In this document: piece after piece, positions 19-61,726 of the stretch
How the letters are laid out: each line of letters starts with the position of its first letter
How positions within the stretch are numbered: position 1 is the first letter of the stretch
Assembly: GCF_900111485.1 (NCBI RefSeq)
Contig: NZ_FOIC01000014.1
Location: 1-64,000 of the forward strand
Direction of reading: 5' to 3'
DNA from: Natrinema hispanicum
Lineage (GTDB): Archaea > Halobacteriota > Halobacteria > Halobacteriales > Natrialbaceae
Length of the DNA stretch: 64,000 nt
The notes under the pieces: model-generated
Told to the model about the DNA's origin: nothing
Databases searched by the model: none
Seen by the model: only the letters and a program-made list of their open reading frames with translations
Position numbers and translations under genes: made by a program

Positions 19-214
19 CTCGATAGCGGCGGCAGCAAGAGGCTGGTCTGATATGGTGAGAACGCCGAAATGAGACGAAGGACACTTTTGGCACTACGGA
101 GACTGGAAGATGAGTCAAAGATCTGGTTACTTGCCGCTGTGGCCATCGCTCAAACCGCTCTCAGAAGACAGCTGTTGCTCCCCGCCAGCCTCGCTTCGAC
201 CGAAGCGAGGCGGC

Positions 215-36423: not shown

Positions 36424-39330
36424 TTATAGCCCCTCCGTGTAATGACCACTCAGTTTCACGAACTCAGACATATCGTCACCTGTAGTTTCACCCGTGAACT
36501 CGATTTGTGTGAGTATTCCCGTGAGTTCGTGTTCGTAAATCTTCAGCCCGGTCAGCGTTCCGTGAATCGACGCATGAGTGCCCTTTTGCACCCACAGCTC
36601 GTCTTGGAGCATGCACGCGCTCAGAACTTTGTCAATTTCCTCTTGTGAGTAGGTAACGAACTTGCCGAGAATTTCCTTCGTATCTGGACTCACGTCGTCA
36701 TAGGTCCTGATACTCTCGATATATTCCTCAACGTTCGATACGTTTATTCCACGCAGTTGGTGATTGACGAACCCAGCAGCGGCCGGTGCATCATCGTCAC
36801 CCGCAACTGAGCTGAGCGCGTCAAACAGGTTGTATCCTGCGAACGCAATGTCCTTCACCGATGTACTACTGTCGAAGCGGAGTTCTGAAGGCAAATTCTG
36901 AATCCCACCCTTCTTGAGGTCATCCAGCACTTCCACTGGAGGGGCCTTAGAGAGCCGCTCTCTGATTTGCTGGATGTCAAGAACGTTATCACTTGCTGCA
37001 AAGTATTCGCCCACAAGCCTCTGAATCTGTTTCGTTTCGCTCATGAACGCAGCGATGTCGTCCTGTTTCTCCTGCACGAGTCGGTCGCCGAGAATGTTCT
37101 TCAGGTCAGCGTCTAGTGAGAGATCATCGGCCGAATACGCTTCTTGAATCCGCTCAGCTGTAACCTCTTTCCAGGGATCGTCCAACATTGCGGCAACACC
37201 ACAGAGAGCGATAACGAGGTCTTCGAACTCTCTATTTTGAGCAGCCTGAACGAAGAAATTCGGATTAGACTCGAGATACTCCGATCGAATCGTTGATCGC
37301 CACTCACGAGCGTAGCCAGTGAGTTGAGTGCCGACTGCACCGAACAACTCCGCCTCGTCGGCCTGTCGAGGACTCATCTCACGGTAAACACCATATCTAA
37401 GAAGTGCTAGTAGATCGGATGTCGTGAAATCTGCTGGATCAATCCTGATTTGGTCTCTACTCGGCACACCCTGCCCCTCGAGAACGAACGGATCATTGTT
37501 CCCGCCGACAAGATACTCGAGTTCGCCATCGGGTCGAAGCACAAATCCTTCTGTGAGGTGGTCCAACGCAGCCTTGAAGGCCGTCCGCATGTAGACGTCG
37601 AGATCTGCTGCGGCACTTGCATCGGGGTTCTCGCGCCACGTATCGAGGTACCCTTTGACTTCCTCGATCTTCTCTTCTTCCGGATCCGGCTTCGGTTCCC
37701 GTCGTTTCTTCTGCTTCTGTTTTTTTTGCTTCTGTTTCTTCTTCCGTTGCTTTGTCTTCGGGATGACCCACGCCTCGCGAGGCCCTCCATGATCAGTGGA
37801 AACGGCCTCCCGTTCGATTGGCAAGTCCTCTAACAACTCTTCATCGAATCCGAACGCTTTCGGAAACCGCGCGTCGACGACCAGAGCATCCGAATCCTCG
37901 CCTTCTTCCCCGTACCACTTTGCGAGTTGCCGAACAGACTCCTCACTGTAGATGTCATCGTGTACGGTGCGGGAATTGTGGAGGTCGTTCAACTCGTCAG
38001 AACTTGCGGGTGAGTCGACAAACTCCTCGAGGTAATCCTCGAGGACGTTGAACACCTTTTGGACGTACTGTCGCGGTCGCTGGTCACCATCGTCGAGACC
38101 GCGATAGATTCGTCGCAAGAAGCCCTCGTTAAACGGGAAGAGATCCCGAAACGTGTTATTGCAGAAGCCACACTGCATACATGTGCTGCTGGATGCCGGT
38201 GAATCGATGTCGACAATTGCGTTGGTTTCGTCACGCTCGTACGAGACGCTCCCGTCGCTGTGCTTAATGTATCCCAGATACGGGCGGATAAAGTCAACAC
38301 ACGAGTCTTCGTTCAAGAAGAGGACGCTGCTCGAATTCGGGCGGTTCGTCCGGTAGAACTCGTGACGTTCTAACCCGGTTTGGGTGTGAAGGATCTCGGT
38401 TGAATCTTGTGTTCCCGCGATAATGAAGTCCCAGTTGTTCTCCGTACTGTCGTCCTCCATGAAGTCACGGAGCTTCGCTGCGTCAAGAGCCGAGATAGAA
38501 AAGTCTTCAAACACGAGCACCGGACGGTCCTCACCGAAATCCTGACCAACGCGTTTCAGGAGTTGATCCAACGACGGCGTGTCATATTCGTCTCTAACGG
38601 CCTCCCAGATTGCATCGTTCCATGCTTCTGCTGCGTCTTCCAGTGACTTCTGTTCGAAGACATTTAGATAGGAGAAGTTCTCGATCTCGCCCGGATCAAC
38701 GAAACTCACCTTTGTCGCGAGATTGCCACGCTGGCTGATCGCAGTCAATTTGTCACGGACGAACTCTTCGAGTTGATCTCGTTCGCTAACTGTGAAATCA
38801 ACGTTGGTGTCGTCCAGGTCCGAGATGTTGAGGGCGGCTTTTGCAACGACGAGACTGGCGACCGTATCTCGATTCTGACGAACATGTTTCTGGAGTCGTT
38901 CAACATTGCTCGCTCCGGGGAGTTCTCCTCCGATGTGCTCTCGATAAAAGTCAGGGATCTCCTCGGCCATGATCGTGAGGAGATCGGCGTTCTTATCGAT
39001 GTGGAGGACCGGTCGCCCGTCATCTTGAAGTCGATGAGAAAGATACGCACAGAGTTCAGACTTTCCCGTCCCGACGTTGCCCTCAATGACCGTGACGAAG
39101 TTCTTCGAACGGTGTCTATCGAACTGTTCGTATATCTCTTCTTCAGAAATCTCCACTTCTCCCTCAGCGAGAGCATCGAAAACAGTGATTCGATGATGGG
39201 TGAAATCGAAGAGGTCCTTGTCCTCTGATCTGACCTTGGCGACCTTGCTGGAGAGTTGACTCAGGAACTCTTCGTCGATATCGAGGTAGTGCGGACACAG
39301 TGATCCGTTGGGTTGCTGGATTGAACTCAT
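36424..39330 (-). CDS. large P-loop ATPase (DpdH-like)
   Basis: A 968-residue protein. The Walker A motif GNVGTGKS lies at 84-91 in FVTVIEGNVGTGKSELCAYL, and Walker B is in RPVLVFEDFSISALDA near 270. A sensor-like FIIAGTQ follows. A CMQCGFCNN cluster near 395 may bind zinc or Fe-S. A lysine/glutamine-rich spacer lies near 525-555, then a long helical C-terminus. The overall plan, and a wHTH gene overlapping upstream, resemble the DpdG-DpdH pair of 7-deazaguanine DNA-modification islands; that relation is inferred, not tested. It starts with a 4-bp overlap with the upstream gene. Confidence 0.65.
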   Translation of the reverse strand: MSSIQQPNGSLCPHYLDIDEEFLSQLSSKVAKVRSEDKDLFDFTHHRITVFDALAEGEVEISEEEIYEQFDRHRSKNFVTVIEGNVGTGKSELCAYLSHRLQDDGRPVLHIDKNADLLTIMAEEIPDFYREHIGGELPGASNVERLQKHVRQNRDTVASLVVAKAALNISDLDDTNVDFTVSERDQLEEFVRDKLTAISQRGNLATKVSFVDPGEIENFSYLNVFEQKSLEDAAEAWNDAIWEAVRDEYDTPSLDQLLKRVGQDFGEDRPVLVFEDFSISALDAAKLRDFMEDDSTENNWDFIIAGTQDSTEILHTQTGLERHEFYRTNRPNSSSVLFLNEDSCVDFIRPYLGYIKHSDGSVSYERDETNAIVDIDSPASSSTCMQCGFCNNTFRDLFPFNEGFLRRIYRGLDDGDQRPRQYVQKVFNVLEDYLEEFVDSPASSDELNDLHNSRTVHDDIYSEESVRQLAKWYGEEGEDSDALVVDARFPKAFGFDEELLEDLPIEREAVSTDHGGPREAWVIPKTKQRKKKQKQKKQKQKKRREPKPDPEEEKIEEVKGYLDTWRENPDASAAADLDVYMRTAFKAALDHLTEGFVLRPDGELEYLVGGNNDPFVLEGQGVPSRDQIRIDPADFTTSDLLALLRYGVYREMSPRQADEAELFGAVGTQLTGYAREWRSTIRSEYLESNPNFFVQAAQNREFEDLVIALCGVAAMLDDPWKEVTAERIQEAYSADDLSLDADLKNILGDRLVQEKQDDIAAFMSETKQIQRLVGEYFAASDNVLDIQQIRERLSKAPPVEVLDDLKKGGIQNLPSELRFDSSTSVKDIAFAGYNLFDALSSVAGDDDAPAAAGFVNHQLRGINVSNVEEYIESIRTYDDVSPDTKEILGKFVTYSQEEIDKVLSACMLQDELWVQKGTHASIHGTLTGLKIYEHELTGILTQIEFTGETTGDDMSEFVKLSGHYTEGL

Positions 39331-41175: not shown

Positions 41176-44100
41176 TCAGTCTCCAGAGGCGGTCTCTATT
41201 TCTGCTGAGTCAGCTAGATGGGTACCATCACCGATGACGGCCCGTAGCGCAAATTTGTCGAGCAGGTCCTTTTCTAGATAGAACGCTGGTGTCCGCGCAA
41301 GCAACAGGCACTGGTCACAGTATCCAGAGCACTCCTGACAGCCAGCAACCTCATGGATCCGCCTTTGAAGTGCAGCCCCTTCGCGAAGGGCCTCGAGCAC
41401 CTGCCAGGTAACACCATTGCCACCCTCTCGACTATCCACCACGAACACGTCAAGTACATCTCCCGTATCGGCGACCTTTACCCGGAAGTCATCTCGGTCA
41501 CACTCGGCGATAATTGCAATGGCTTTCTCGAGAGACTGTTCGAGGCTCACAAGCGCAGCAGGCCACGATGCATCCGGTGTCGTCTGTGCATATTCGTCGA
41601 ACCGAGTTCGAACCGCTGAGCGTTCGAACTGGAATCGGAGGCCACGCGTATGATACTGCTGACCCACCGGTCGGTAGGTCGTATCGTCAACCTCGTCAAG
41701 CAGTTCGTCTAACGAGGCATCAGCATCGTCAACGTTCGAGTCTCCGCCAGCATCCACCACTGCTTCGGATTGAAGTGTTTTCTTCTCACTTCGCCGAGAG
41801 TGAAACTGCTCGAACGCGTAAATGAAGTCAACGACATCGAAGTCACCAGCCGAAAGTTCGCATTCTAACCCGAACAGATCGACGGTCTCCGTTTCGTGGG
41901 TATCCGTCTGGTCGATGTGGACAGTTGATATCGGACGTGTCGAGTACCCTTTCTGTCCACCAGATGCCTTCTTGCAGGTCACCGACGCGACTGGATGGAT
42001 TGCGGTTTCGTGAAGAGAGGAGCCACAATGCGGACACACCTCGTGTTCGAGTTCGTGGCTTTCGAACGGGCGTTCACAATCCTCGTTTCGGCAAATTCCG
42101 GTCTTTGTGATTTCGTCAGGGCTTCCATGGACGTCCGTGACGATGTACTTGGTCCCTTGAAGACGGAATACGGCTCCGGTGTCGTTCTCGGGGCCAGGGA
42201 ACACCTCGAACAACCTACCCGATGTCTCGAACCGAATGTCGTCATTTCCTCTGTTGCTGACTTTGATCGGGAACTGCGACCCAAACCCTCGATAATTCGC
42301 AAGATACCCTAAGAGGCCTGCCCACTGGTCGAGACGACGGTAGCGCTCTGTTAGCGACGTTACTGCCTGGACAGATCCGTCGACGTTGGTGAGTGTCTGG
42401 AATGTTCGCTTCCCGCGACGCTGGAGGTTCAGAGGACTCTCTTCAAAGAAGATTGTCTCGAATATCTCGACGCCGCGCGGTCCGAAGACGTTCCGAAGGT
42501 GGCGTTCGACACTTGTCCGCTGTGGATCATCGCTGACGAACTTCTCCAAGATGCGGAAGCGCTTGCGGACCTCTTGCTGGTAGCTTGCGAGATCGAGCGC
42601 CGATTCGTTGAGTGAGTAGATCTGATCCATCACCTGCTTCGGGTCCGGGTTCCGGAGGAGATACGCAAGTGTCTCGGTGAAGACATGTCCGGCCATTACC
42701 TCATCGTAGTTCTCCGGATCGGGAACCCGAACAGGTTCGAACCCAGAGAAGAACGCCTCGAGATTGGCGTAGTAATGGTTGTCGACGGGATGTTCGCCTC
42801 GAATAACGGTCGAGACAAGCGAGGAACTGCCACGCGAGCGCCCTGTTCGGCCACTCCGCTGAACGTAGTTGGTCAGCGTCGGCGGCACACCCACCTGTGT
42901 GACACTATCGAGCGTCCCAATATCGACACCGAGTTCCATTGTGGGCGTAGCGCTGACGATGTTGACATCGGGGTCTGACTTTCGGAACGCCTCCTCGATT
43001 GCGCCGCGGAGCGAGGCTGGGACATCTCCTTTGTGAATGCCGACAGAAATGGACTCTATCGAATCAGCGGCCGCTGGTTGTGCGATATCACTCCCCCAGT
43101 GATCGACGTTCCACTCCCAGTCACTCTCGACATCAGCTACCCCAGTTCCAGCGTATCCGTTGTCAGTACTGGTGAACCGTTCGTACGTCTCTACATCGTG
43201 CTCACACTGCGGACAGACGTTGAGGGTCTCATTCTCGGGAGCCGGATAAGCGGCGTAACAGTTCGTACAGTAGGTAACGCGCTCGACCAACCGAAGGACG
43301 GAGTCATCTTCCTTGAGGTCTCTTTGGAAGACACCGCTCTTAACCGAGTGGTCGAAGTCAGCGAGTCCACTGAGACGATCCCGCTCGTCTTCGAGATAGG
43401 TGAGCGTACCGTCAGTGTTGTCGACCGATTCGCCACTATCATGAACTTGCTGGGTCAGTTCGTCCCACGGCGGTTGGTGAACGAATCCTGCTTCGTCGAG
43501 TCGTGCCAAGATATCTGGAAGGTATCGGTCGAGTTCCTCGTCGCTAAACCGCAGTCCGTTTGAGACCTTATTCCGCAGCCGGTCGTAGGTGAGTCCCTTG
43601 ATCGGGATACGGTTGCGTTGGAAGGAGACATTTGGGTCTTGAGCGAAGATATCGAACACCTCATGTCCGATCGCGAGCGCACGGGGTTCCGAGAGATCGG
43701 AGAGATAGTCCGATGTTACGAGCGCCGCTGGTGTGAGGTGACGACAGTTCTGGAGGGACGCTTTCCGCTGGATCTGCTGGCGCATATCTTCGAGGATTTC
43801 GTAGGTCGCCCCCTCTTCGTCGATTGCGTTCTCCTTGAGTGGTTTCCAGTACTCCTCTTTCAGTCGGTCACTGACATTGAAGTAGATCTCGGATGCCTCC
43901 TTCGAGCCACCGGCGTCAAGGAGTTCCTCGATATAGAGCGACTCTGCCACTAATCCGTATTCGGTGTCTATAATCTCTCCGCCGACTGTCTCAGCGGAAC
44001 TCCGGGAATCGTTGAAGACGAGAGTCTTCTTCGACGGTGTTAGCCTGCAGAGTTCGGTCAGCATGAACGACAATAACGTCGACGTGGGAACGTTGATGTC

Positions 44101-45942
44101 CTGAAGGGATGGGTTCTCTCCACACCCCGGACAACGGTCCATCTCCGGTGCGTTCAGCGGAACGAACTCCGTCTCGTCCCCTCGGTCCTCACCGACGTAT
44201 GGATGATGGCAGCGACGACAGAACTGGAGTTCTGGGATCTCGGTTCCACATTCACGACAACTGTTATGCCGGGAGACTATTGCACATTCGCTGCACCAGT
44301 ACGCCTTCGACGGCGGTTTCAGGAACGTATGATACTTGTCGGTGAGAATCCGACCGAGTCGACCGAAGAGCATCACCGTCGAAAGCACGCCTTCGGGGTC
44401 ATCGACGGATTCGGCATCGACCGCATTTAATAGATCATCGTAATGCCGGAATCGGACACTCCCGGTCCCCTCTTCGAAGAGTTCGGCGAGCGCTCCGACT
44501 TCAGGAATGTTCTTGGCGGCGAACCGCTTCCAGTTGCTCCCGATGTTTTCGGAGTCGAGGACTCGGTTGACGATTCGTTCCACTCCTTCTTCCGATGCTG
44601 CGACATCGAGGGGGTCATCGTATTTGTCCGTCTTGACCAACGAGTCGATCGTCGACTCGATGGGAGGGAGAAGCCACTGCTCTACTGACGGACGTACACG
44701 CAACTGGTTGCCACCGGCTAAGATACCGATCTCGCGAAGCGTCGAAATCGCGTTCCCCAGTTCAGGATATCGTTCTCTCAGATCAGACGCCGACGTCGTC
44801 TCTTGCGTGGCGTGAATGAGAACTCGGACGATCTCTTCTAGCGAACACGGCTCTATCCGTCCGAAGTCCGGCTTGCCGTCAACTGGAACTGGTTCGGGAG
44901 TGAACGTTACCTCGTTCACATTTGACTCTTCGCTGCCGGTCAGCGAAGCTGCGAGTTCAGCCGGGTTGTCTACGGTCGCGGATACCATCGTGACCTGTGG
45001 ATCTCTCGCACTGTAGAACGATTTCAGTCGGCGCGAGAGCAGGGAGACGGATGCGCCGCTGATACCGGACCAGACATGAGCCTCGTCGTACACGATGTGT
45101 TCCACAGGATGTTCGCTCGGTTCCTCACCGATCAAGCCTCGCGTCTTCGACTTATCATTGACGAAGATGTAATCTAAGGCCTCCGGGTTGGTCAAGAGGA
45201 TGTCAGCTCCGCTCCGGATGCCCTTTCTGGTGACGCGTATCCACGGATAGTCGTGATCGTCGGTTCCGACATTGAAATTCGACTTCACGCGGAGTTTGTC
45301 ACCCGTTCGGGGACACTCCAGTCCGCGGATGTACGATCCTGACTGGATCTGGAAATCTTGGCTGCCGACGGACTCCTCGGTATCGCCGTCCCAGATACCG
45401 ATCTTGATCTTCTCACCTTTGAGGTCCTGATTGACACGGTCGAGATAACGAATGAAGCGGTTTAGCTGGTCCACCTCCAGAGTTTTCATCGGGTATATGA
45501 CGATCGACTTCAGCCCGGACTCGTCGGTCTGAAGGCAGTGATTCAAAATCGGAAGGAAGAACGACTCCGTCTTTCCGGTCGCAGTCGGGACCGCGAGTAT
45601 ATTGTCGTTCGTGTCACTTTCGATAGCATCGACCGTCTCTGCTTGATGTTGATACAGCGGCAGAGAGTCATCGCCGTCGAACAAGACATCTATTGCGGCC
45701 TCTGAAACGAGATCATGGTAGCCGTGTGAATCGAGGAACTCAGAGATAGAGACGTTGTGTGCCTTCGGGGTACGGACGTACTCGACATATGGCCCCTTTG
45801 ACTCGATAAGTTCGTCTCGGACGAACGACTCGGCATTGTCGATATTCTCCTGTTGGTTTAATTTCGTAAGCGATCTGTTCCACCAGATGATCTCGGAAGC
45901 TCGATTAACGGCACCATCCAGTGCTTCCTGTGGTGAGTCCAT
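41176..45942 (-). CDS. giant SF2 helicase with DUF1998 end (DruE/DpdJ/MrfA-type)
   Basis: A 1588-residue helicase. Q motif LPLYQHQ (94-100), motif I AVPTATGKTE (117-126), DEAH (286-289), SATVDN and QRSGRTGRSRG (motif VI) are all intact. A block of zinc-binding cysteines lies between the helicase halves (CSECAIVSRHNSCRECGTEI, CRRCHHPY, CPGCGENPS), with more near CTNCYAAYPAP. The C-terminus has the DUF1998 pattern, GGNGVTWQVLEAL followed by CQECSGYCDQCLLL. Relatives are YprA/MrfA repair helicases, Druantia DruE and DpdJ. The ATG at 45942 is chosen because the longer frame has a hydrophobic, non-haloarchaeal extension. It probably translocates on DNA as the motor of the system. Confidence 0.8.
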   Translation of the reverse strand: MDSPQEALDGAVNRASEIIWWNRSLTKLNQQENIDNAESFVRDELIESKGPYVEYVRTPKAHNVSISEFLDSHGYHDLVSEAAIDVLFDGDDSLPLYQHQAETVDAIESDTNDNILAVPTATGKTESFFLPILNHCLQTDESGLKSIVIYPMKTLEVDQLNRFIRYLDRVNQDLKGEKIKIGIWDGDTEESVGSQDFQIQSGSYIRGLECPRTGDKLRVKSNFNVGTDDHDYPWIRVTRKGIRSGADILLTNPEALDYIFVNDKSKTRGLIGEEPSEHPVEHIVYDEAHVWSGISGASVSLLSRRLKSFYSARDPQVTMVSATVDNPAELAASLTGSEESNVNEVTFTPEPVPVDGKPDFGRIEPCSLEEIVRVLIHATQETTSASDLRERYPELGNAISTLREIGILAGGNQLRVRPSVEQWLLPPIESTIDSLVKTDKYDDPLDVAASEEGVERIVNRVLDSENIGSNWKRFAAKNIPEVGALAELFEEGTGSVRFRHYDDLLNAVDAESVDDPEGVLSTVMLFGRLGRILTDKYHTFLKPPSKAYWCSECAIVSRHNSCRECGTEIPELQFCRRCHHPYVGEDRGDETEFVPLNAPEMDRCPGCGENPSLQDINVPTSTLLSFMLTELCRLTPSKKTLVFNDSRSSAETVGGEIIDTEYGLVAESLYIEELLDAGGSKEASEIYFNVSDRLKEEYWKPLKENAIDEEGATYEILEDMRQQIQRKASLQNCRHLTPAALVTSDYLSDLSEPRALAIGHEVFDIFAQDPNVSFQRNRIPIKGLTYDRLRNKVSNGLRFSDEELDRYLPDILARLDEAGFVHQPPWDELTQQVHDSGESVDNTDGTLTYLEDERDRLSGLADFDHSVKSGVFQRDLKEDDSVLRLVERVTYCTNCYAAYPAPENETLNVCPQCEHDVETYERFTSTDNGYAGTGVADVESDWEWNVDHWGSDIAQPAAADSIESISVGIHKGDVPASLRGAIEEAFRKSDPDVNIVSATPTMELGVDIGTLDSVTQVGVPPTLTNYVQRSGRTGRSRGSSSLVSTVIRGEHPVDNHYYANLEAFFSGFEPVRVPDPENYDEVMAGHVFTETLAYLLRNPDPKQVMDQIYSLNESALDLASYQQEVRKRFRILEKFVSDDPQRTSVERHLRNVFGPRGVEIFETIFFEESPLNLQRRGKRTFQTLTNVDGSVQAVTSLTERYRRLDQWAGLLGYLANYRGFGSQFPIKVSNRGNDDIRFETSGRLFEVFPGPENDTGAVFRLQGTKYIVTDVHGSPDEITKTGICRNEDCERPFESHELEHEVCPHCGSSLHETAIHPVASVTCKKASGGQKGYSTRPISTVHIDQTDTHETETVDLFGLECELSAGDFDVVDFIYAFEQFHSRRSEKKTLQSEAVVDAGGDSNVDDADASLDELLDEVDDTTYRPVGQQYHTRGLRFQFERSAVRTRFDEYAQTTPDASWPAALVSLEQSLEKAIAIIAECDRDDFRVKVADTGDVLDVFVVDSREGGNGVTWQVLEALREGAALQRRIHEVAGCQECSGYCDQCLLLARTPAFYLEKDLLDKFALRAVIGDGTHLADSAEIETASGD

Positions 45943-46062
45943 ATTCAAAGTCGTGCATCTATAGCTCTGCACCTTCCAAATAACTATTGGTACCTCAATA
46001 CCAGATAAAATAAATCCTATACAGGAGACCACACATTTATTTAACAGATGCTTAGAATAGCG

Positions 46063-49000
46063 TCAGTTCCCTGTATTTGCGTACGGAGTTGCTTCTGCGA
46101 TTAGACGTTGGAACAGGTCTTTTGTCTGTAATGTTTCTCCGTTCCCAACGAGGACCACATCTTTCGCGCACGAGAAAAGCCGATAGAGTACTTCGGGATC
46201 GTCAAGTGGCGGACGAACGATACGAGCATCGTTGGCCGTCCCGAAGCTTACGATGGCTCGGTCCGCAACGTCTCCGTCGAGGTTCTCGGGCAAAGACACT
46301 GTTGCATCGACGTTTTCATCAGCGAGTCGCCGTTCGATCGCGTTTGCATGAGCCGCAAATGGGGTTACTATCAGGTCGATATCCTCGGCTGAGGCAACTT
46401 GCGTAACGATCTGTTCCGCGATGCGATTGCGGAGCAGGGCACTACTGAATTGAGAGAGTTCGAGTGCGTCGGCACGGATGCTGACCTCATGGTACTCCGG
46501 GTTGTCTCCGTCGATCTGGCCCTTCCTCGCCAAGTAGAAGCTCTCCTCGTTGATCACGACGATGCTCTCTTCGCGTAGACTTGTCACGTCGAGATTGTGC
46601 CGGTCAGTGAAAATTTCCTGTGCCTCCAATGGATCAATCGGTGTATCAGTAACATCAAACACAAGCCGGCGCCCAGGGCCGTTCTCGGCGCGGACTGTCG
46701 CGTGTAACTCGATCGCCTCGACGGCGCTCGCTTCGCCACCTTCGATGTTCAGGAACCGGATCTGGCCTTCTATGTCGTCCCAAGGACCGGACGGATAGAG
46801 TTGTCGCAGCGCTGGCGGTGCTGACCCACTCATCTGAAGACTGACCGCAGTCTCGCTCTCGAACGAACTGTAGTGTTCGAACGCCTGTTCGAAGTAGGAC
46901 ACCTCGAGATCGGCATCGCGAGCGCTCCGACTCACCATCGACGGCCCGCTCGCACGCGTGTCGCCGACGAGGGCAGCCCTGTCAGCGACGTCCGCGAGGA
47001 ACCGATATTCCGGCTCTGTGAGCGCCTCGGCACCGAGTACAACTAGATGGTCGAAGAATTTGTCAGAGTGATCACGAGCTCCGAAAGACCCCTCCTCAAG
47101 TCTATGGAAGAACTGACCGACCCCACCCGGACCGTTTTCGCTCGTTGCAGCTTCTACCGACGACACCAACGAGTTCGACTCCAAGAGTCGCTGCTGTAAT
47201 TCGTGATACCCGTCAATGTCACGGAGTGCATGATGTTCGTCGCTTCCAGTCATACCATCCACCCGATAGTGGGCTCCCTCTGGCTGCGCGTCGGCAGCGA
47301 TATCCACCATCTTCGGAGTGGTTCCGAGTACGAGTACACGACGCGCCGCATCTGGAACATTTTCGCCTTCATTATTGGGATGCGGGAGTGATGCGGTCAA
47401 GATTTCCCGGACGAGTCGTTCGAGTTTCGCTCGCCGATCAGTCCCGATTGGGAGATCAATAAACACCTCCTCGGTATCGAGATAGTCGGTGACCCTCTCG
47501 GGGACGATATCCCTCGTTGCCGTGCTAGTCGTCGTGTTCCCTCCCTGAATTCCGAGGCTAACTCCGCGTCGCTGTGCGAAGTCGAGGTATGGAAGATACC
47601 GGTGGGTGATCGAACGCGTGCTGAACGCGTACAACGCTTCAAAGGGGCCGTCTTCGCTCAAGAACGCACGTGCAGAACCTGAGACGAGTTTGAACCGATG
47701 CGTGTCCGAACGTTGACCGAGATAAATGGCCTCCTGATCCACGCTTTCGGTTCGCGTCCGAAGTCTGACGGTGGATCCGGGTGAAAACGCCGGGACCGTA
47801 GGTTCCCGGGCCTCGAATAGCACCACGGCACCTGACGAAGCCATGCCCGAGAGCGTGAGTTCATCGAGTAGGTAACCCGTGTCGCGCTGAACGCTCCGGT
47901 CAAGTCGTTCGAGTGCTCGGCGAGCGCTGTTTCTGGCTCTCTTCTCGTCATTAAACGCTGCACGGGTCGATTCGTACCGATCGATGGTAGCCGGTGTGCG
48001 GTATTCGTGGCGTTGTTCACAGCGGTCGAAGAGCGAGCAATCGGACGTCACACTTCCGTCTTCGAATTCGTAACACGGCCACCGACGTTCGTTCTGGCAA
48101 TGATAGGTACAAGCCGGGGGAAGGGCGTCATTCGGTCCGTTGATCCACTCCTCTGAAGCAAACGCGCAGTCTTCGCAGTCGCGATTGTAAGTTGACGGCG
48201 GGGCAAAAGATTCAGCGGACTTCGTCGCGTCGTTACGGACTTGCAAGAACTCGATTACGTCGGACCACGTGAGTTCGACCGGAACAAAGCGGACATCTTC
48301 CGCGTCTACGTTCGGATAGATTAGGTAAGCAGTCTGCCCCTCTGCAATCACCTTTCGTACTGACTGCCCGTTCTCTAAATTCTCGAATAGTAGTGAAGTC
48401 AGATAGAGCTTCAACTGATAGCTATGCTTATCGATCGTCTCGTCGTTTGGATTGCGTGTAGTCTTGATGTCGTACGGTGTCTCGTCGAGTAAGAGATCGA
48501 CTTGGCCGGCGAATCCGAGATCCTGATCAAGGAACCATTCGACCTCGACACTGTCGGCTTCAGTGAGTCTATCTCGGAGTTCCTCGTCAGTGAAGAGACG
48601 CGTCGTAATCTCAACGATGTGGTCTCGTTCGTCGAGCCCTGCCCCTGATAAAACGAGCAGAGCCTGTTCGAATCCGAGTCCATCGTCGAGAAACTCAGTA
48701 CAGTACGTTTCGACGGATTCGGGCGTCCATTCGTCGTTCAAAAATCGATCCAGATGCTCTTCGAACGCTTTCTCCGCGATTTCGTGGACCGCATTTCCGC
48801 GGAAGATCGAACTACGCTGGTAGTTTTCACGGTTGTATCGACCTCCTGTGTAGGCGTTCTTGACGTACCGAAGGTAGTATTCCCGTGAACACCGCTCTTG
48901 GACTCTGAGTTTCGCTTTGCTTACCAGCGTCTCCGGTGACCGGATAACGACCGAAGTGACGTTGAGATAGAGATCAGCCTCTCCCTCGCCCGGGCGATAG

Positions 49001-49329
49001 TTGGGCACCGCACGGACGATCAATTCCTCGTCCTGTCGAAGGCCCATTCCCTCGAGGCCCTCATTTATATCGTTCGAGACCAGAATATCGAGGGTCGACA
49101 GGAGAGAGGAGTCAGTGGCCCGAATGCCGTCAGGTGACGGCGAGTCTGCCCAAAACGATAGCGCGGCCACGCCGGCCTCTCGTTCTACCGGATCGTCGAC
49201 GAGATAGACGATTTTCTCACCGCCGGCCTCTCCCGGCATGGCGTCACTACGAACGCGACACCGAATCATCATCTCTTCACCGATACCATCGGGTGGGTTC
49301 TTGAGCAGCGTCGATAACTCGTGAATCAT
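46063..49329 (-). CDS. Dna2/Cas4-like Fe-S nuclease with degenerate SF1 helicase
   Basis: A 1088-residue protein. Residues of about 140-440 are a RecB/Cas4-type nuclease: C147, H182 in GNAVHEIAEKAF, D278 in FAGQVDLL, D287/K289 in PYDIKTT, and YQLKLY at 304-309. C385, C388, C407 and C411 or C419 can complete a 4Fe-4S cluster with C147, as in Cas4, AddB and Dna2. The C-terminal half follows the order of an Upf1/Dna2 SF1 helicase but its Walker A position reads IDLPIGTDRRAKL, its Walker B reads LVVLGAEAL instead of a DE pair, and the QGxE motif reads NLDGDVAD. So the nuclease looks active and the helicase looks dead. It overlaps the upstream gene by 4 bp. Confidence 0.8.
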   Translation of the reverse strand: MIHELSTLLKNPPDGIGEEMMIRCRVRSDAMPGEAGGEKIVYLVDDPVEREAGVAALSFWADSPSPDGIRATDSSLLSTLDILVSNDINEGLEGMGLRQDEELIVRAVPNYRPGEGEADLYLNVTSVVIRSPETLVSKAKLRVQERCSREYYLRYVKNAYTGGRYNRENYQRSSIFRGNAVHEIAEKAFEEHLDRFLNDEWTPESVETYCTEFLDDGLGFEQALLVLSGAGLDERDHIVEITTRLFTDEELRDRLTEADSVEVEWFLDQDLGFAGQVDLLLDETPYDIKTTRNPNDETIDKHSYQLKLYLTSLLFENLENGQSVRKVIAEGQTAYLIYPNVDAEDVRFVPVELTWSDVIEFLQVRNDATKSAESFAPPSTYNRDCEDCAFASEEWINGPNDALPPACTYHCQNERRWPCYEFEDGSVTSDCSLFDRCEQRHEYRTPATIDRYESTRAAFNDEKRARNSARRALERLDRSVQRDTGYLLDELTLSGMASSGAVVLFEAREPTVPAFSPGSTVRLRTRTESVDQEAIYLGQRSDTHRFKLVSGSARAFLSEDGPFEALYAFSTRSITHRYLPYLDFAQRRGVSLGIQGGNTTTSTATRDIVPERVTDYLDTEEVFIDLPIGTDRRAKLERLVREILTASLPHPNNEGENVPDAARRVLVLGTTPKMVDIAADAQPEGAHYRVDGMTGSDEHHALRDIDGYHELQQRLLESNSLVSSVEAATSENGPGGVGQFFHRLEEGSFGARDHSDKFFDHLVVLGAEALTEPEYRFLADVADRAALVGDTRASGPSMVSRSARDADLEVSYFEQAFEHYSSFESETAVSLQMSGSAPPALRQLYPSGPWDDIEGQIRFLNIEGGEASAVEAIELHATVRAENGPGRRLVFDVTDTPIDPLEAQEIFTDRHNLDVTSLREESIVVINEESFYLARKGQIDGDNPEYHEVSIRADALELSQFSSALLRNRIAEQIVTQVASAEDIDLIVTPFAAHANAIERRLADENVDATVSLPENLDGDVADRAIVSFGTANDARIVRPPLDDPEVLYRLFSCAKDVVLVGNGETLQTKDLFQRLIAEATPYANTGN

Positions 49330-51386
49330 CTATCAAACACCTCCGTCAGCAATCGCCGGTTGAGTGTCGTCCCCTGGTGCCCGGTCGCTTTCAGACAACG
49401 ACTTCGCTCTGTCTGCAGACAGTCTGGGCAAGCGGTGAGACATCCCACCGTCAACTCTTCGAGCCGTTCCTCTAACTCGGCGATATCTTTTCGGCCGGTT
49501 TCGCTCGCGAATCGTTCGTACGTCGCCTGGATGCTGGGATCCTCGAAGACGTGCCGGTCCAAGAACAGTGCCAGATCGGCGGTCCGCGGTGTGCGTCCGA
49601 GTTCGGTCGTCAGTTCCTCCAGTCTGGCGGCCAAGTAAGAGTAAAACCTGGCGAGTTCACGCGTCTCAAACAATCGTCGAACCCGCGCCGTAACGAGCGA
49701 TCGCAGGTCGTCTTTGCTGAACGCATCTGTATCCGAGATCTGTCGGTCGAGGGTTTCGTCGACCAGTTCGTCGAAATATTCTCGGTTTGTTTGCTGGATA
49801 TCGTACAGTGATCCGTCGGGGTGATCCGCCAGAAGACGAATGGCGGCGCGGTCGGCGGTCGCCGAATGACACTGTCCTTGAGTGGCTAGTCCGCCGTCAA
49901 TACCGAGACTCTCGTCGGTATCAAAGAGTTCAGCGACCTCCTTGGCGATACCGGCTCCGCCTTCGATAGCGTCATAGATGCTGATTCGGGCGTGTGAGTC
50001 GTCGCTGGCCTGGAAGTTGAGATCGTACCAGAGTTCGAACGAAGTTCCACTCCCGGTTGACTCGGTCGCCCACGTCGCGAGCGCATGTTCGGCCGAGTGA
50101 ACGAGGACATCCTCAGCGAACTCCGCGACGAGGTCATCGTTCCGACATCGAGCAAGGAGTTCGGCGAGGGTTCCCGTCTCGTACCGGACTGTCTGAAGCG
50201 CGAGCGACGAATCAGGTCCCTCGTGTCCGAGAAGTCGGAGTCGCGTTGGAGAATCAGTCGGCAATAATTCTTCGACTGTTTGGACTAAGGCTGGCCCTGA
50301 GAGACTGAACACACCGTACTCGTCTTCTTCGACTGTCCGGCGCCAGAAGTCGGCACCGATCAGGTGTTCCATCAGCGGCTGCACCGCGAACTCGTGTTCG
50401 ATCGCCTCCTCATCGAAGAACAACCGCTCCCACAACTGCTGGTGCAGATACGCGAATTTCACGTCGCGTTTCAGCCGAGGATTGTCAGCGAATGCTGCAT
50501 CGATCCGTGACCGTAGTTCCTTCCGGTCGAGTTCGATCGAGAGGACTTGGCTCCGCTCACGTGTCCCGACGAACGCAGTTGTATCGTCGTCTTCGACGCT
50601 GTACGTAATGAGTCCAGATCTCGTGTGGGTTGTCCCCTCGGGATACAGCGTGAGCAAGGACGCGTAATAACACCGGACGAACTCGTGGTCCTCCTCGAAC
50701 GCCACCCCCGTGACTACGTCACTATCCGCGATTGCAGATACATCATCGGTCTCGCTGAACGGTTCTGCTGTGTGTTTGAACCACAGGTAGTTCGTCGTCG
50801 GATCCGACGAGAGCGGCGTACTCGACATCGGCGGTCTTCCCGTCCAGACGATGTTCTCGTCGTCGAGCCAGACGTAATCCGGATCGACTAAATCGTCGAC
50901 GCGGATGGTCCGAGGAACGTAGACGCGAACGTCTTCTGGATCGAACGAAAGTTCGGTGTAGTTAACCGATGAAACATCTCCGAGGAGTTCTGTGAGTGGG
51001 TACGAATGGGCCCAATCGAACATCGGACCGATATCTGCAACACCGGAATCGGAACCCAGTTCCCAGGCGCCGCGCCAGAGTCGGAACTTCTTCCAGCGCT
51101 TCTTGTACCCGCCTGGGAGGAAGTTGCTCAACACTTGATTCGCATTCTCTTGTCCGAGAACCTCTTCGCTCTCGTCTTCGATAACCGTGAGCGATCCGCC
51201 CACCTCCTCGGATATAAATGTCTCAGGAATGATGTACGGCGGGTTTGCCGCCGGATCGGCGTTGAAGATGCCCGCGAGGTCGAGATACGAGAAATCAGAT
51301 TCGTCTACCTGCTTACGGATTCCCTGCAGACGGCCGATTCGATCGCTACGGCTCAGCCCAGAATTCTCTCGCGATTCGCGGCTCAT
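49326..51386 (-). CDS. DrmB-like DUF1998 protein
   Basis: A 686-residue protein without its own helicase motor. The C-terminal part shows the DUF1998 signature: LVHSAEHALATWA, then YDAIEGGAGIAKEV, and a cysteine cluster GCLTACPDCLQTERSRC near the end. It starts at 51386, overlapping the stop of the helicase gene by 4 bp; a longer frame to 51677 lies antisense-free but inside the helicase gene and reads arginine-rich, so it is rejected. In DISARM, DrmB binds the DrmA helicase; the split pair here has the same order. It also overlaps the nuclease gene by 4 bp. Confidence 0.75.
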   Translation of the reverse strand: MSRESRENSGLSRSDRIGRLQGIRKQVDESDFSYLDLAGIFNADPAANPPYIIPETFISEEVGGSLTVIEDESEEVLGQENANQVLSNFLPGGYKKRWKKFRLWRGAWELGSDSGVADIGPMFDWAHSYPLTELLGDVSSVNYTELSFDPEDVRVYVPRTIRVDDLVDPDYVWLDDENIVWTGRPPMSSTPLSSDPTTNYLWFKHTAEPFSETDDVSAIADSDVVTGVAFEEDHEFVRCYYASLLTLYPEGTTHTRSGLITYSVEDDDTTAFVGTRERSQVLSIELDRKELRSRIDAAFADNPRLKRDVKFAYLHQQLWERLFFDEEAIEHEFAVQPLMEHLIGADFWRRTVEEDEYGVFSLSGPALVQTVEELLPTDSPTRLRLLGHEGPDSSLALQTVRYETGTLAELLARCRNDDLVAEFAEDVLVHSAEHALATWATESTGSGTSFELWYDLNFQASDDSHARISIYDAIEGGAGIAKEVAELFDTDESLGIDGGLATQGQCHSATADRAAIRLLADHPDGSLYDIQQTNREYFDELVDETLDRQISDTDAFSKDDLRSLVTARVRRLFETRELARFYSYLAARLEELTTELGRTPRTADLALFLDRHVFEDPSIQATYERFASETGRKDIAELEERLEELTVGCLTACPDCLQTERSRCLKATGHQGTTLNRRLLTEVFDR

Positions 51387-54118
51387 TCTATCTCCTCCTC
51401 GCGTAGGGCGTCGATGAGTTGATCGATCGGGCCCGTCGTCTGGCGGTTGTCCATCGCTCGTTCGAAGAACTCCCAATAGGGTGTATCGTCCGTTCCAGGT
51501 GCGACTTCCTCGAACAGGGATACGACGTATTGGTCGAACTCCTGGAGAACTCGGTCGATTTCTTCGGCGGATGCCTCGAACGCCGAGTCGAGCCAGTCGC
51601 GGATGTCGGGTTCGTGCGCTTCGAATTGGTCTCGTAAGTACGGGACATCCGGACCGACACCGGAACCAGATGTCCACTGTCCCCGGAATAATCGCTTTGC
51701 GTCGGTCGTGTCTGTGACGTTGAAGTAGTCGACAATGGCAGCAGTCATGTGTTCCGCGCGGACGAAGCGGTTGTCCGCGTCCAATGGGATATCCAGGTGT
51801 TCATCACGAGGGTCACTCAGGTAGTTCGAGTGGTGGAAGTAGTACGAATCGGTCGGCGACGATCCGAGGACGACGACCGTGATCGGCTCGTCTTCCGCGT
51901 CACGTCCGCCACGCCCTTTCCGTTGTACAAAACCGGGGACGTTTCGCGGTGCTCGGTACTGGAAGGTGCCGATGATACTTGGGTGGTCGAACCCGACTTC
52001 GAGAGCGCTCGTCGAAATGAGCTGATCCCAATCGTCTTCAACCGTCGCTCCGGTTCCGGCATGCTGTGTGCGACCACTCTTGTGGATGGCAACTTCCATC
52101 GCCTGTAGATCGAGACGCCTGTCCTGCATCGTCCACCAGCATTCTCCGTCCTCGTAGACCGGACAAGCGTTCAGATTCGGGTTTGGCGGAAGTGATTCAC
52201 ACACTGCACCCTCGTCGAAAGTGTCGTCGGTCGCACCTCGGAACTGCTCTCGAGGACAGTCCGGATTGTTTCCTCGTTCGCCGAGTACGGCATCGGGAGT
52301 CCGCAGCCGGAAGAGCCCTTCTTCTTCAGTCTCTTGCACGAAACCGCCGAGCCGACTCACCGAATCGATCGAGTCGACGAACCCAAGGATTCGGTCCTTG
52401 TTGTCGGTGAGCCCCGGGCGATCCCCGGCCTGTTCTTTCCGCATCGTATGATAGAACGCGAACGCGATCTGGATCATACACGAGAGGTTCGTCGCGGTCG
52501 TCGGCGCGGTCTCGGTCCACTCGGATCGAGGTTTAAACTGCGAGTCTCCGACCGGGACGATGACTTCACGCGGATCGGTTGCTTTGACGAATACGAAGTG
52601 TTCGCGGCCAAGCGTATCCTTTTCGTCTTCACTGGGTGAAAGGTGCCTAACGGACGACTCTTCGATCCCGAAGATTCGGCCAGTGAACTCCGTCGCATTG
52701 TTGATTGTGGCACTCGATGCGATGAAGCGTGGTTCTTGATTACGAGCACGCCGCTGCATCGCTTGTTTGAACCGCCGAACGACGTTCGCCACGTTCATCC
52801 CCGCCTGATCGGTGTAAACGTGTACCTCATCGAGAACGAGGAACTTCGGTGGGTAGGGTTCGGACCAGAGGGCCGCGTTCCCGTACTTGTCCATCAGACG
52901 GCGATGGAGTGAGTCACCGGTCGTGATGAGGAAGTCGGCGGACGCACCCCGATCAGTGGTTGCATAGCGGACGACGTGATCGGAGTCTTGCTGGCACTCG
53001 AAGTGCGCGTCGTCTTTTCGTTCGAGTGTCCCGTCCACTTCGTCATCGCAGTGGGGACACGGGAGTTCGACGTCTCCTCGACCACCGTGCTGAATGCTGA
53101 GTGTGAGCGGGGCGTCGCTGAACGATGCATCGATCGAACCCTGAAGTTCGTTGATCGTAGTTATATACGAGAACAGTCGTTCGAACTGGTTATTGCAGAG
53201 ATCACGCCGCGGATACGTCAGTACGGCCTTCGTTCCGTCGATTCCCGCTTCGTTTGCTAACAGCGAATACGCGAGTGTCGGGAAGAGGAACGCTTCCGTC
53301 TTTCCTCCGCCCGTACTCGCCGTTACCACGTTCGCATCGCGGGCCTCTGATCCGCCTTGAGTGACCGAATCGACGAATACGTTCTCGAACGCACGGGCCT
53401 GATAGGCGGCGAGTGAGTCGAATTCTTCAGGGAGACCAGTTTGGAAGAACTCACCCATCAGTTCCAGAGTATCCGAGACGGCCATGCGCCAGTCGCTGCC
53501 GAGTGAATCTTCAAACTCCCAAGCGGGTTCCGCGTCTTCGATCTGTTCGTTGATGCGGCGCAGAGGCTGTTGGAATCGCCGCGCTTTCTCGCGGTTTTTC
53601 CCCATAATCGGCTGCTCGCGGTCAGCCGAGGCTATTTTGACCATTTTCACGAGGTTCGGCGAAAACGAATAGTCCGTGTCGCTCGATAGACGCTGCCTGA
53701 TGAGCGCAAAATATCGCGCCATTTCGGCGACGTGACTCCGCACTTGCTGGCGGTTGTAAACGTACAGGAGATCGCCGTTATCGACGAGTTCTTCGATCAA
53801 TTGCTGGAAGATGATTTGTGCGACCTGTTCGTGGCCCCGTTCGAGGACTTCCACGATGAGTGCGTCCGATTCCAGCACATCGGTCACGAACGGAGCGTCA
53901 TCCGCGCAATGTTCGTCGACGAACGCCTCGAATACATTTTGCATGGAGGCAGTCGCATCGTAATTACCTGCATTTATTCCACTGGCACACGCGTCGGTTA
54001 CGGTATCGAGGATATCATTTTTCACCGACCGGTACACCTCCTCTTCGGATGTAAACGTCTCCCATGCCGTCTCGATGGTCTGCTCGTCGACCGGTGCAGA
54101 GATGGAGTCAGAACTCAT
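51383..54118 (-). CDS. DrmA-like SF2 helicase
   Basis: A 911-residue helicase. About 240 residues of helical N-terminal extension precede motif I TASTGGGKTE (266-275). Then follow a zinc pair (LPCPHCDDE, FECQQDSDH), motif II LVLDEVHVYTD, motif III SSATINN, STSALEVGFDHP and motif VI QRKGRGGRD. All core motifs are intact. It lacks a DUF1998 end; the partner gene directly downstream supplies it, as in the DrmA-DrmB pair of DISARM. It overlaps both neighbours by 4 bp, so this is the tightly coupled core of the cluster. Confidence 0.8.
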   Translation of the reverse strand: MSSDSISAPVDEQTIETAWETFTSEEEVYRSVKNDILDTVTDACASGINAGNYDATASMQNVFEAFVDEHCADDAPFVTDVLESDALIVEVLERGHEQVAQIIFQQLIEELVDNGDLLYVYNRQQVRSHVAEMARYFALIRQRLSSDTDYSFSPNLVKMVKIASADREQPIMGKNREKARRFQQPLRRINEQIEDAEPAWEFEDSLGSDWRMAVSDTLELMGEFFQTGLPEEFDSLAAYQARAFENVFVDSVTQGGSEARDANVVTASTGGGKTEAFLFPTLAYSLLANEAGIDGTKAVLTYPRRDLCNNQFERLFSYITTINELQGSIDASFSDAPLTLSIQHGGRGDVELPCPHCDDEVDGTLERKDDAHFECQQDSDHVVRYATTDRGASADFLITTGDSLHRRLMDKYGNAALWSEPYPPKFLVLDEVHVYTDQAGMNVANVVRRFKQAMQRRARNQEPRFIASSATINNATEFTGRIFGIEESSVRHLSPSEDEKDTLGREHFVFVKATDPREVIVPVGDSQFKPRSEWTETAPTTATNLSCMIQIAFAFYHTMRKEQAGDRPGLTDNKDRILGFVDSIDSVSRLGGFVQETEEEGLFRLRTPDAVLGERGNNPDCPREQFRGATDDTFDEGAVCESLPPNPNLNACPVYEDGECWWTMQDRRLDLQAMEVAIHKSGRTQHAGTGATVEDDWDQLISTSALEVGFDHPSIIGTFQYRAPRNVPGFVQRKGRGGRDAEDEPITVVVLGSSPTDSYYFHHSNYLSDPRDEHLDIPLDADNRFVRAEHMTAAIVDYFNVTDTTDAKRLFRGQWTSGSGVGPDVPYLRDQFEAHEPDIRDWLDSAFEASAEEIDRVLQEFDQYVVSLFEEVAPGTDDTPYWEFFERAMDNRQTTGPIDQLIDALREEEIE

Positions 54119-55188
54119 TCGAACGTGACCTCCACGTCGGCGATTTCGTTGTCATCGTACATCGTCTGGAGCGTCTCGAGTATCTCGCTAAACGCAAATT
54201 CGGTCGCTGCTGCTGTTCGGTTAACGCTGCCATTATGCTCTTCGAGGAGGCGCCGAAGACGAGCCCCCTTCGATCGAGTTACTTCTGTTCTGATGACCGA
54301 TATCAACTCACTTAGCAGTACATCAACGTCACCGCGAGCGGCACTCTCCTCATAATCTAACTCGATATCGAGGCCCTGATTGCGAATGAGTTCAGCTAAC
54401 GTTTCTGCGAAGTCTTGATTAGCAACTGCCCTACTCACAGAGTAGTGATGGATAAGTGCCCCTTCGAGAGCTATGCGGACCACTTCGACCGCCGCATCCA
54501 GATCCGTTTCATGCTTCTCTTTGGCATCTGAGCGGCGTTTTTTAACTTCCCCGAGTGAGTCCGCGAATGACGACTTTTCCGCATTCTCATCGGCAAGCGA
54601 GCCGAGTCCGTCGTGAATTATGGGGAGCAAATCATCGATGATCGAAAGACAAGCATCGGTATACTCGCTGGCATCTACTTCCTCTAAGAGATTCCCGTCG
54701 AGTTCGCGAAGAGTCCGATCTACAGCCTCTGGGGAGAATTTGTCGTTGGTTCGGACCTTCTCGTGTCGATTCTTGGTTATCAACTGCTCCATCATCCCAC
54801 AGATCCGCTCCACCTCTGAACACCGACTACGCGTCGAATTAGAGATCTCGCGTTGTCGCGTTAACCGATCGTAGCCGTCAAACCACAATCGGAGGCGATC
54901 GACATCGGCTTCGATGATGGCCCGCTCTCGATCGCGAACAGTCGCAAGAACGGACTGTAGTAGTTCTGCGCGATCGGCGGCGTCCTCCGCTCGACGAAGT
55001 TCCTGTTCGGAAACGCGAATTACGTCCTCGAGGTCTTCGAGTTCCCGATCGAGTTCGTTGAGGGATTCCACCAGTTCGCTCGGAACTGCATCGAAGTCCT
55101 CGACCGAACGGTATTCCGAACGTGCCGTGTCCAGATAGTTCCGCGCGGAGCGGAGTGTTGCTTCGTAATTTTCTGACGTTGCTTCCAT
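54115..55188 (-). CDS. coiled-coil protein with C-terminal winged helix
   Basis: A 357-residue protein. The N-terminal third is a long coiled coil (LDRELEDLEDVIRVSEQELRRAEDA); a helical central domain follows. The end looks like a helix-turn-helix (ARLRRLLEEHNGSVNRTAAATEFAFSEILETLQTMYDDNEI). It overlaps the DrmA-like gene by 4 bp and probably forms a regulatory or DNA-binding subunit. A 295-bp gap upstream (55189-55483) holds no gene and could carry a promoter. Confidence 0.6.
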   Translation of the reverse strand: MEATSENYEATLRSARNYLDTARSEYRSVEDFDAVPSELVESLNELDRELEDLEDVIRVSEQELRRAEDAADRAELLQSVLATVRDRERAIIEADVDRLRLWFDGYDRLTRQREISNSTRSRCSEVERICGMMEQLITKNRHEKVRTNDKFSPEAVDRTLRELDGNLLEEVDASEYTDACLSIIDDLLPIIHDGLGSLADENAEKSSFADSLGEVKKRRSDAKEKHETDLDAAVEVVRIALEGALIHHYSVSRAVANQDFAETLAELIRNQGLDIELDYEESAARGDVDVLLSELISVIRTEVTRSKGARLRRLLEEHNGSVNRTAAATEFAFSEILETLQTMYDDNEIADVEVTFE

Positions 55189-61518: not shown

Positions 61519-61726
61519 ATCACACCACCCTTCCAACCATTCTGTGCTTCTTCTCGTATTTCAAGGGCAAACGCTTACTGCTAGTTGGCACCTAACATTG
61601 CTATAACAAATATGTTGTTGCCAAGAACTTCTTCCAAATATAATATAAATATAGTTATGATTAATTCTCTGAAACTGCCCGCTCACATCGGATAGTCGAG
61701 GTCACTACTAGCCGAACCATTTCTCA

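What the first reader, a model, noticed from the sequence alone, without database searches (positions are those of the whole stretch)
46063..49329. Dna2-like nuclease whose helicase half has lost its ATPase motifs
Seen: the Cas4/RecB core and four-cysteine pattern are complete (C147, H182, D278, D287, K289, C385, C388, C407/C411/C419). The SF1 half reads IDLPIGTDRRAKL for Walker A, LVVLGAEAL for Walker B and DGDVAD for the QGxE motif. Known: Dna2 needs both activities for end processing. Inference: a pseudo-helicase that clamps DNA or a partner helicase while the Fe-S nuclease cuts.
Basis: partly seen in the sequence, partly recalled or inferred. Interest (0 to 1): 0.78.

Follow-up and report, generated by a model that had tools for sequence, protein, structure and literature searches.

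The report
Dead-helicase Dna2 nuclease in archaeal defence
A DNA-cutting enzyme of salt-loving archaea, built like the repair enzyme Dna2 but with a motor that can no longer burn ATP, is always found beside a separate working motor in a virus-defence gene cluster, so one machine seems to have split its 'drive' and 'cut' jobs between two proteins.

Summary
ORF 46063-49329(-) encodes an OB-nuclease-SF1B protein collinear with Dna2. The AlphaFold model (pLDDT 82.6) matches Dna2 over 808 residues, Z 17.7. In 20 of 20 homologues, down to 22% identity and in a second archaeal class, the Walker A glycines and lysine, the Walker B glutamate, the motif V glutamine and the motif VI arginines are gone. 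The nuclease residues and eight cysteines are invariant. Eight intact haloarchaeal Dna2 paralogues, one from this genome, keep GPPGTGKT and DEA(S/A/G)Q, so this is a decayed SF1B motor. dN/dS of about 0.11-0.17 shows it is still under selection. The gene ends a translationally coupled set: coiled-coil protein, SF2 YprA/DpdJ-type motor with intact motifs, DUF1998 subunit, pseudo-Dna2. Motor and pseudo-Dna2 occur in the same 13 of 392 genomes; DpdA-family (7-deazaguanine DNA modification) genes occur in all 16 carriers examined. It sits where bacterial Dpd systems place the PLD nuclease DpdK. Most likely it is the nuclease of a Dpd/BRIGADE-type restriction module: the SF2 motor moves DNA while the dead SF1B fold docks or guides it, as AddB does beside AddA. 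That division of labour is inferred, not shown.

The parts
46063..49329 (-). Pseudo-Dna2: OB-like N domain, Cas4/RecB-type nuclease with 8 invariant Cys, inactivated SF1B helicase (1088 aa)
48937..49329 (-). Residues 1-131, OB-like beta domain (as at the N terminus of Dna2)
   Evidence: secondary structure; Dna2 alignment from residue 2 of the model
47995..48936 (-). Residues 132-445, PD-(D/E)XK nuclease (PF12705, E=5e-14) with H182, D278, D/E287, K289, Q305, Y309
48019..48177 (-). Residues 385-437, invariant cysteines C385, C388, C407, C411, C419, C431, C437 (with C147 at 48889-48891): predicted Fe-S cluster plus a possible second metal site
46066..47994 (-). Residues 446-1088, SF1B helicase fold (1B barrel, RecA1, RecA2) without ATPase motifs
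47428..47469 (-). Former Walker A (motif I), FIDLPIGTDRRAKL, residues 621-634; Lys replaced by Arg in 17/20
47011..47055 (-). Former Walker B (motif II), residues 759-773, FDHLVVLGAEALTEP; catalytic Glu replaced by Gly in 20/20
46942..46968 (-). Former motif III, residues 788-796, VGDTRASGP (GDxxQLPP in intact relatives)
46264..46290 (-). Former motif V, residues 1014-1022, PENLDGDVA (DRFQGSSKE in intact relatives)
46144..46191 (-). Former motif VI, residues 1047-1062, arginine finger lost
49326..51386 (-). DUF1998/MZB subunit, about 686 aa (likely start ATG 51386, not the GTG at 51677); overlaps the pseudo-Dna2 start as ATGA
   Evidence: PF09369 E=1e-5; start; conserved neighbour
51383..54118 (-). 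SF2 motor, helicase half of a split DpdJ/YprA-type protein (911 aa), Walker A TGGGKT and DEVH intact
   Evidence: ATGA overlap
54115..55188 (-). 357-aa coiled-coil-like protein, conserved first gene of the cassette in the closer haloarchaeal loci (24-36% identity)
   Evidence: ATGA overlap
41176..46032 (-). Second YprA-family helicase, 1618 aa, DruE/ARMADA-like, directly downstream; absent from 15 other carrier genomes
36424..39330 (-). 968-aa AAA ATPase with weak DpdH similarity (E=3.5e-7), same strand

Best explanation
The protein is a Dna2-type helicase-nuclease whose SF1B helicase lost ATPase activity in the ancestor of the family. It now serves as the nuclease subunit of an archaeal Dpd/BRIGADE-type restriction module. 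SHOWN BY SEQUENCE AND MODEL: Dna2 architecture; complete nuclease; ATPase motifs missing in every member; helicase half conserved and under purifying selection; fixed coupling to a separately encoded, intact SF2 YprA/DpdJ-type motor and its DUF1998 canopy subunit; linkage to DpdA-family DNA transglycosylases. INFERRED: (1) the host marks its own DNA with a 7-deazaguanine base; (2) the SF2 motor plus DUF1998 subunit loads on unmarked DNA and translocates; (3) the pseudo-helicase docks the nuclease on that motor and guides the emerging strand, as the dead SF1 domain of AddB does beside AddA; (4) the nuclease cuts the strand. The module would thus use two proteins for what Dna2 does with one.
For: Motif loss in 20/20 homologues while 8/8 intact paralogues keep the motifs. 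Profile match to intact haloarchaeal Dna2: 99.7% probability, E 2e-25. Dna2 is the top fold match, E 1.7e-29, Z 17.7 over 808 residues; a model built without intact relatives also puts Dna2 first. dN/dS 0.11-0.17 in the helicase half. Same 13/392 genomes carry motor and pseudo-Dna2. The order helicase, DUF1998, pseudo-Dna2 holds in the window and all 13 other loci examined, with ATGA overlaps in the window. Motor motifs intact in 14/14. DpdA-family hits in 16/16 carriers, 15 above the curated cut-off. A Deinococcus Dpd locus has the order DpdJ helicase, DpdJ C half, DpdK PLD nuclease. AddB precedent: PMC4824097.
Against: No complex, ATPase or nuclease activity has been measured. The residues kept in the dead fold look structural rather than DNA-contacting, so DNA guiding is less supported than docking. 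The fourth Fe-S ligand cannot be assigned among C407, C411 and C419. The window locus also carries a second YprA helicase and a DpdH-like ATPase, so the partner could be another protein. Anti-viral activity of this module has not been tested anywhere that I found.
Confidence: 0.62

Rival explanations
1. The dead SF1B fold is a sensor: it scans the strand fed by the SF2 motor for 7-deazaguanine marks and licenses or blocks the nuclease, as the AddB/RecC dead helicases read Chi.
For: Dead SF1 helicases act as ssDNA scanners in AddB and RecC (PMC4824097). The module is tied to DpdA in 16/16 genomes. The helicase half is conserved.
Against: No conserved base-reading pocket was identified. In Dpd systems other subunits could read the mark.
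Confidence: 0.15
2. The pseudo-helicase is purely structural: an assembly platform for DUF1998, motor and nuclease that does not touch DNA.
For: The invariant residues of the helicase half are mostly Gly, Pro and hydrophobic or otherwise probably structural positions. Gene order is fixed.
Against: The whole SF1B channel architecture is kept, more than a docking surface needs.
Confidence: 0.16
3. It is a standalone repair nuclease that happens to sit in a defence island.
For: Dna2-like fold; Mre11, Rad50, NurA and HerA homologues lie nearby.
Against: Perfect co-occurrence with the split DpdJ-type helicase, DpdA linkage, patchy distribution, plasmid copies, and an intact Dna2 in the same genome (L055).
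Confidence: 0.03
4. Residual ATP binding or hydrolysis persists through non-canonical residues.
For: Arg replaces the Walker A Lys in 17/20; one member (L073) keeps the Walker B Asp.
Against: The first P-loop glycine and the catalytic Glu are absent in 20/20; the motif VI arginines are lost.
Confidence: 0.04

Closest known systems
Dna2 (eukaryotic) and Bad (bacterial Dna2-like)
   Same: OB-like N domain, iron-staple-type nuclease, C-terminal SF1B fold, collinear with Dna2 over the whole length
   Different: ATPase motifs gone; eight conserved cysteines instead of four; encoded with a separate SF2 motor in a defence module
AddB / RecC
   Same: Inactivated SF1 helicase fused to a RecB-family domain (Fe-S nuclease in AddB) beside an active motor
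   Different: SF1B (UPF1/Dna2 type) instead of SF1A (UvrD type); domain order reversed; motor is SF2 YprA-type; inactivated independently
BRIGADE Type I (Bell et al. 2025 preprint, PMC12458937)
   Same: Halophilic archaea, 7-deazaguanine genes, Dpd-type plus ARMADA-like YprA helicases, PD-(D/E)XK nuclease
   Different: The second YprA helicase is missing in 15 of 16 carriers; the cassette also occurs in another archaeal class; the text read does not describe a dead helicase on the nuclease
Dpd (DpdA-K)
   Same: DpdA; split DpdJ-type helicase followed by a nuclease gene
   Different: Pseudo-Dna2 where DpdK (PLD) stands in Deinococcus; DpdJ similarity far below the equivalog cut-off
Cas4-like nuclease linked to COG1205/YprA (Phylogenomics of Cas4, 2017, PMC5704561)
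   Same: Cas4-like nuclease linked to YprA/DUF1998 helicases in mesophilic archaea, proposed defence
   Different: No dead SF1B helicase or DpdA link in the passages read

Membership tests
Dna2 helicase-nuclease | OB - RecB/Cas4 nuclease - SF1B architecture | tested here: met
   residues 2..1088 aligned with Dna2 37..1053, Z 17.7, rmsd 5.1, 808 residues
Dna2 helicase-nuclease | Walker A/B and SF1 motifs for ATP-driven 5'-3' translocation | tested here: not met
   lost in 20/20
Dna2 helicase-nuclease | Four-cysteine Fe-S nuclease signature | tested here: met
   C147, C385, C388 plus one of C407/C411/C419, all invariant, at wider spacing than in intact relatives; the cluster itself is not testable here
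AddB | N-terminal inactivated SF1A helicase, C-terminal Fe-S nuclease | tested here: not met
   order is nuclease then helicase; the helicase half aligns with SF1B helicases in sequence and fold
AddB | Works beside an ATPase-competent partner motor | tested here: inconclusive
   intact SF2 motor adjacent and co-occurring; complex not testable here
BRIGADE Type I | 7-deazaguanine modification genes | tested here: met
   DpdA 275 bits against cut-off 200 on the same contig, second TGT, queuosine-precursor transporter
BRIGADE Type I | Two YprA helicases, one ARMADA-like and one Dpd-branch | tested here: inconclusive
   both present in the window by HMM, ARMADA-like one absent in 15/16 carriers; no tree built
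BRIGADE Type I | PLD or PD-(D/E)XK nuclease in the neighbourhood | tested here: met
Dpd | DpdJ equivalog (NF041067) | tested here: not met
   187 bits against cut-off 800
Dpd | DpdK PLD nuclease | tested here: not met
   no PLDc_2 hit on the window's contig C40

The most novel reading that the evidence does not exclude
An archaeal restriction complex in which a dead Dna2 helicase reads base modification: DNA moved by a YprA-type SF2 motor is threaded through the inactive SF1B channel, which checks for 7-deazaguanine and switches its own Fe-S nuclease. This would be an independent SF1B counterpart of Chi scanning by AddB/RecC, used for self/non-self discrimination.
Probability: 0.15. Interest if true: 0.85.

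Novelty: new variant of a known kind. Interest (0 to 1): 0.6.

Why it matters
It appears to be a family-wide inactivated Dna2, separate in origin from the dead SF1A helicases AddB and RecC. It shows helicase-nucleases handing their motor function to a partner a second time. It names the probable nuclease of an uncharacterised archaeal 7-deazaguanine restriction module and gives a defined three-protein set on which motor, reader and cutter can be tested separately.

Tried and rejected
Intact-motif orthologues: sought in the order, the phylum, three families and a second class (overlapping sets of genomes). None was found in the family; the intact proteins that surfaced are a separate, housekeeping-like Dna2 paralogue. 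Viral contigs: no match. phmmer of the single sequence against the PDB: nothing, resolved by profile and fold searches. The first structure model from 11 sequences was weak (pLDDT 63.5) but already ranked Dna2 first. The second model used intact Dna2 rows, which could bias it toward Dna2, so both are quoted. BRIGADE as a full label was rejected for the family because the second YprA helicase is not conserved. PLD nuclease in the DpdK slot: none on the window's contig; G262 has one about 4 kb from its helicase, so co-existence elsewhere is possible. A literature search for 'pseudohelicase' gave nothing. Supplementary files of the BRIGADE preprint could not be read, so its authors may have listed this nuclease. 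Organisms of the three distant homologues are unnamed in the tool.

Full report
WHAT IS THERE. The ORF at 46063-49329 on the minus strand is real and 1088 aa long. Pfam finds a PD-(D/E)XK nuclease at residues 137-391 (PF12705, E=5e-14) and a weak Dna2 match. NCBIfam gives only a weak IGHMBP2-family (SF1B) hit at 970-1078. A single-sequence search of the PDB found nothing, but a profile of homologues finds UPF1/NAM7 (E=0.0014), IGHMBP2/SMUBP-2 and Dna2. The host is a haloarchaeon; residues 1-390 are identical in Natrinema hispanicum DSM 18328, whose contig ends there.

ARE THE MOTIFS LOST IN ALL HOMOLOGUES? Yes. Searches of the order, the phylum, three families and one further archaeal class gave an alignment of 20 full-length proteins, the query included, the others at 22-53% identity to it. 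Against eight intact haloarchaeal Dna2-like proteins, one of them from the same genome (L055), the motifs align one by one. Counts over the 20: first Walker A glycine 0/20; Walker A lysine 0/20 (Arg in 17, Asp/Glu in 3); Walker B Asp 1/20 (L073, one of the three distant members); Walker B Glu 0/20 (Gly in all); motif V Gln 0/20; both motif VI arginines 0/20. The framework remains: P627, F759-D760, P773, G789, T989-P990, S1028 and G1062 are invariant. LVDEASQLTEP has become VVLGAEALTEP with the LTEP tail kept, which is decay of a true SF1B motor rather than an unrelated fold. HHalign of the two families: 99.7% probability, E=2e-25.

THE NUCLEASE IS INTACT. H182, D278, D/E287, K289, Q305, Y309 and eight cysteines (147, 385, 388, 407, 411, 419, 431, 437) are conserved in all 20. 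The canonical iron-staple nuclease has four cysteines (PMC7430649). The extra four suggest a second metal site; this was not tested.

FOLD. A model from 11 family members alone was weak (pLDDT 63.5), yet Dna2 was its top Foldseek match (E=3.4e-19). A model from 28 sequences, including intact Dna2 relatives, reached pLDDT 82.6 and pTM 0.83. It matches Dna2 first (E=1.7e-29), with residues 2-1088 on Dna2 37-1053, Z 17.7, rmsd 5.1, 808 residues. IGHMBP2 and UPF1 match the C-terminal half only. The fold is therefore OB - nuclease - SF1B, as in Dna2.

SELECTION. In close pairs dN/dS of the helicase-like half is about 0.11-0.17, against about 0.08-0.11 for the nuclease. The dead half is maintained.

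SURROUNDINGS. Directly upstream, joined by ATGA overlaps, are a 357-aa coiled-coil-like protein, a 911-aa SF2 helicase (DpdJ-like) and a DUF1998/MZB protein. Homologues of the helicase, DUF1998 protein and pseudo-Dna2 lie in this order in the window and in all 13 other loci inspected, including the three distant ones. The helicase keeps its SF2 motifs in 14/14. The two full-length genes occur in the same 13 of 392 genomes; chance overlap of two sets of 13 would be about 1e-24, though joint transfer of a cassette explains this without implying a complex. DpdA-family proteins occur in 16/16 carriers, 15 over the curated cut-off, mostly on the same contig. In Halorientalis litorea the plasmid locus has two TGT-family genes and folE, queE, queC and a queD-like gene. 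In Deinococcus taeanensis a Dpd locus reads dpdE, dpdF, dpdH, DpdJ helicase, DpdJ C-terminal half, DpdK PLD nuclease. The archaeal pseudo-Dna2 stands in the DpdK position, and the window's contig has no PLD nuclease hit.

HOW IT MOST LIKELY WORKS. Dna2 pulls DNA with its own SF1B motor and cuts it. Here the motor part is dead and a separate SF2 motor is always supplied next door. The closest mechanistic parallel is AddAB: AddB carries a dead SF1 domain that binds ssDNA and an Fe-S nuclease, while AddA moves the DNA (PMC4824097; AddB Fe-S nuclease, PMC7430649). I infer that the SF2 helicase plus DUF1998 subunit translocates on unmodified DNA and that the pseudo-helicase docks the nuclease and guides the strand. 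Whether it also reads the modification is open.

WHAT IS KNOWN. Cas4-like nucleases linked to YprA/DUF1998 helicases in mesophilic archaea were noted in 2017 as likely defence (PMC5704561). BRIGADE, reported only in halophilic archaea, has Dpd-like and ARMADA-like helicases with PLD or PD-(D/E)XK nucleases (PMC12458937). Its main text does not contain the words Dna2 or Cas4, and the passages on inactivated domains do not describe a dead helicase on the nuclease; its supplements were not readable. The window locus meets the BRIGADE Type I description at the HMM level, but the second YprA helicase is absent from 15 of 16 carriers, so the conserved unit is smaller than BRIGADE as defined, and it reaches another archaeal class.

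VERDICT. Observation confirmed; pseudo-helicase confirmed as far as sequence and models can; setting corrected from DNA-end processing to a DpdA-linked defence module; mechanism inferred.

Noticed in passing
window 32589-34331 (+): GmrSD-type (Type IV, modified-DNA-targeting) restriction endonuclease near the module (PF03235/PF07510).
   Followed up: no
window 61759-62955 (+) and, beyond the window, G000:C40 62952-69423: Mre11-, Rad50-, NurA- and HerA-like genes in one run beside the module; the HerA, NurA and Rad50 homologues also directly follow the pseudo-Dna2 in L046.
   Followed up: partly
window 55484-58969 (-): 1161-aa protein with helix-hairpin-helix and two homing-endonuclease-associated repeats (PF18780), same strand as the cassette.
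   Followed up: no
window 59020-61536 (-): 838-aa SF2 (ResIII/DEAD) helicase, a further motor in the same gene run.
   Followed up: no
L073:8380-11595 (-): One distant family member keeps the Walker B aspartate (ADGAEQL) while the Glu is Gly, a possible trace of the decay path.
   Followed up: partly
window 26085-27020 (+): ArdC-like N-terminal domain with an M78/IrrE-like peptidase region, typical of mobile elements.
   Followed up: no
L045 and L046 (genome G115): One genome holds two divergent copies of the whole helicase-DUF1998-pseudo-Dna2 cassette on the same contig.
   Followed up: no
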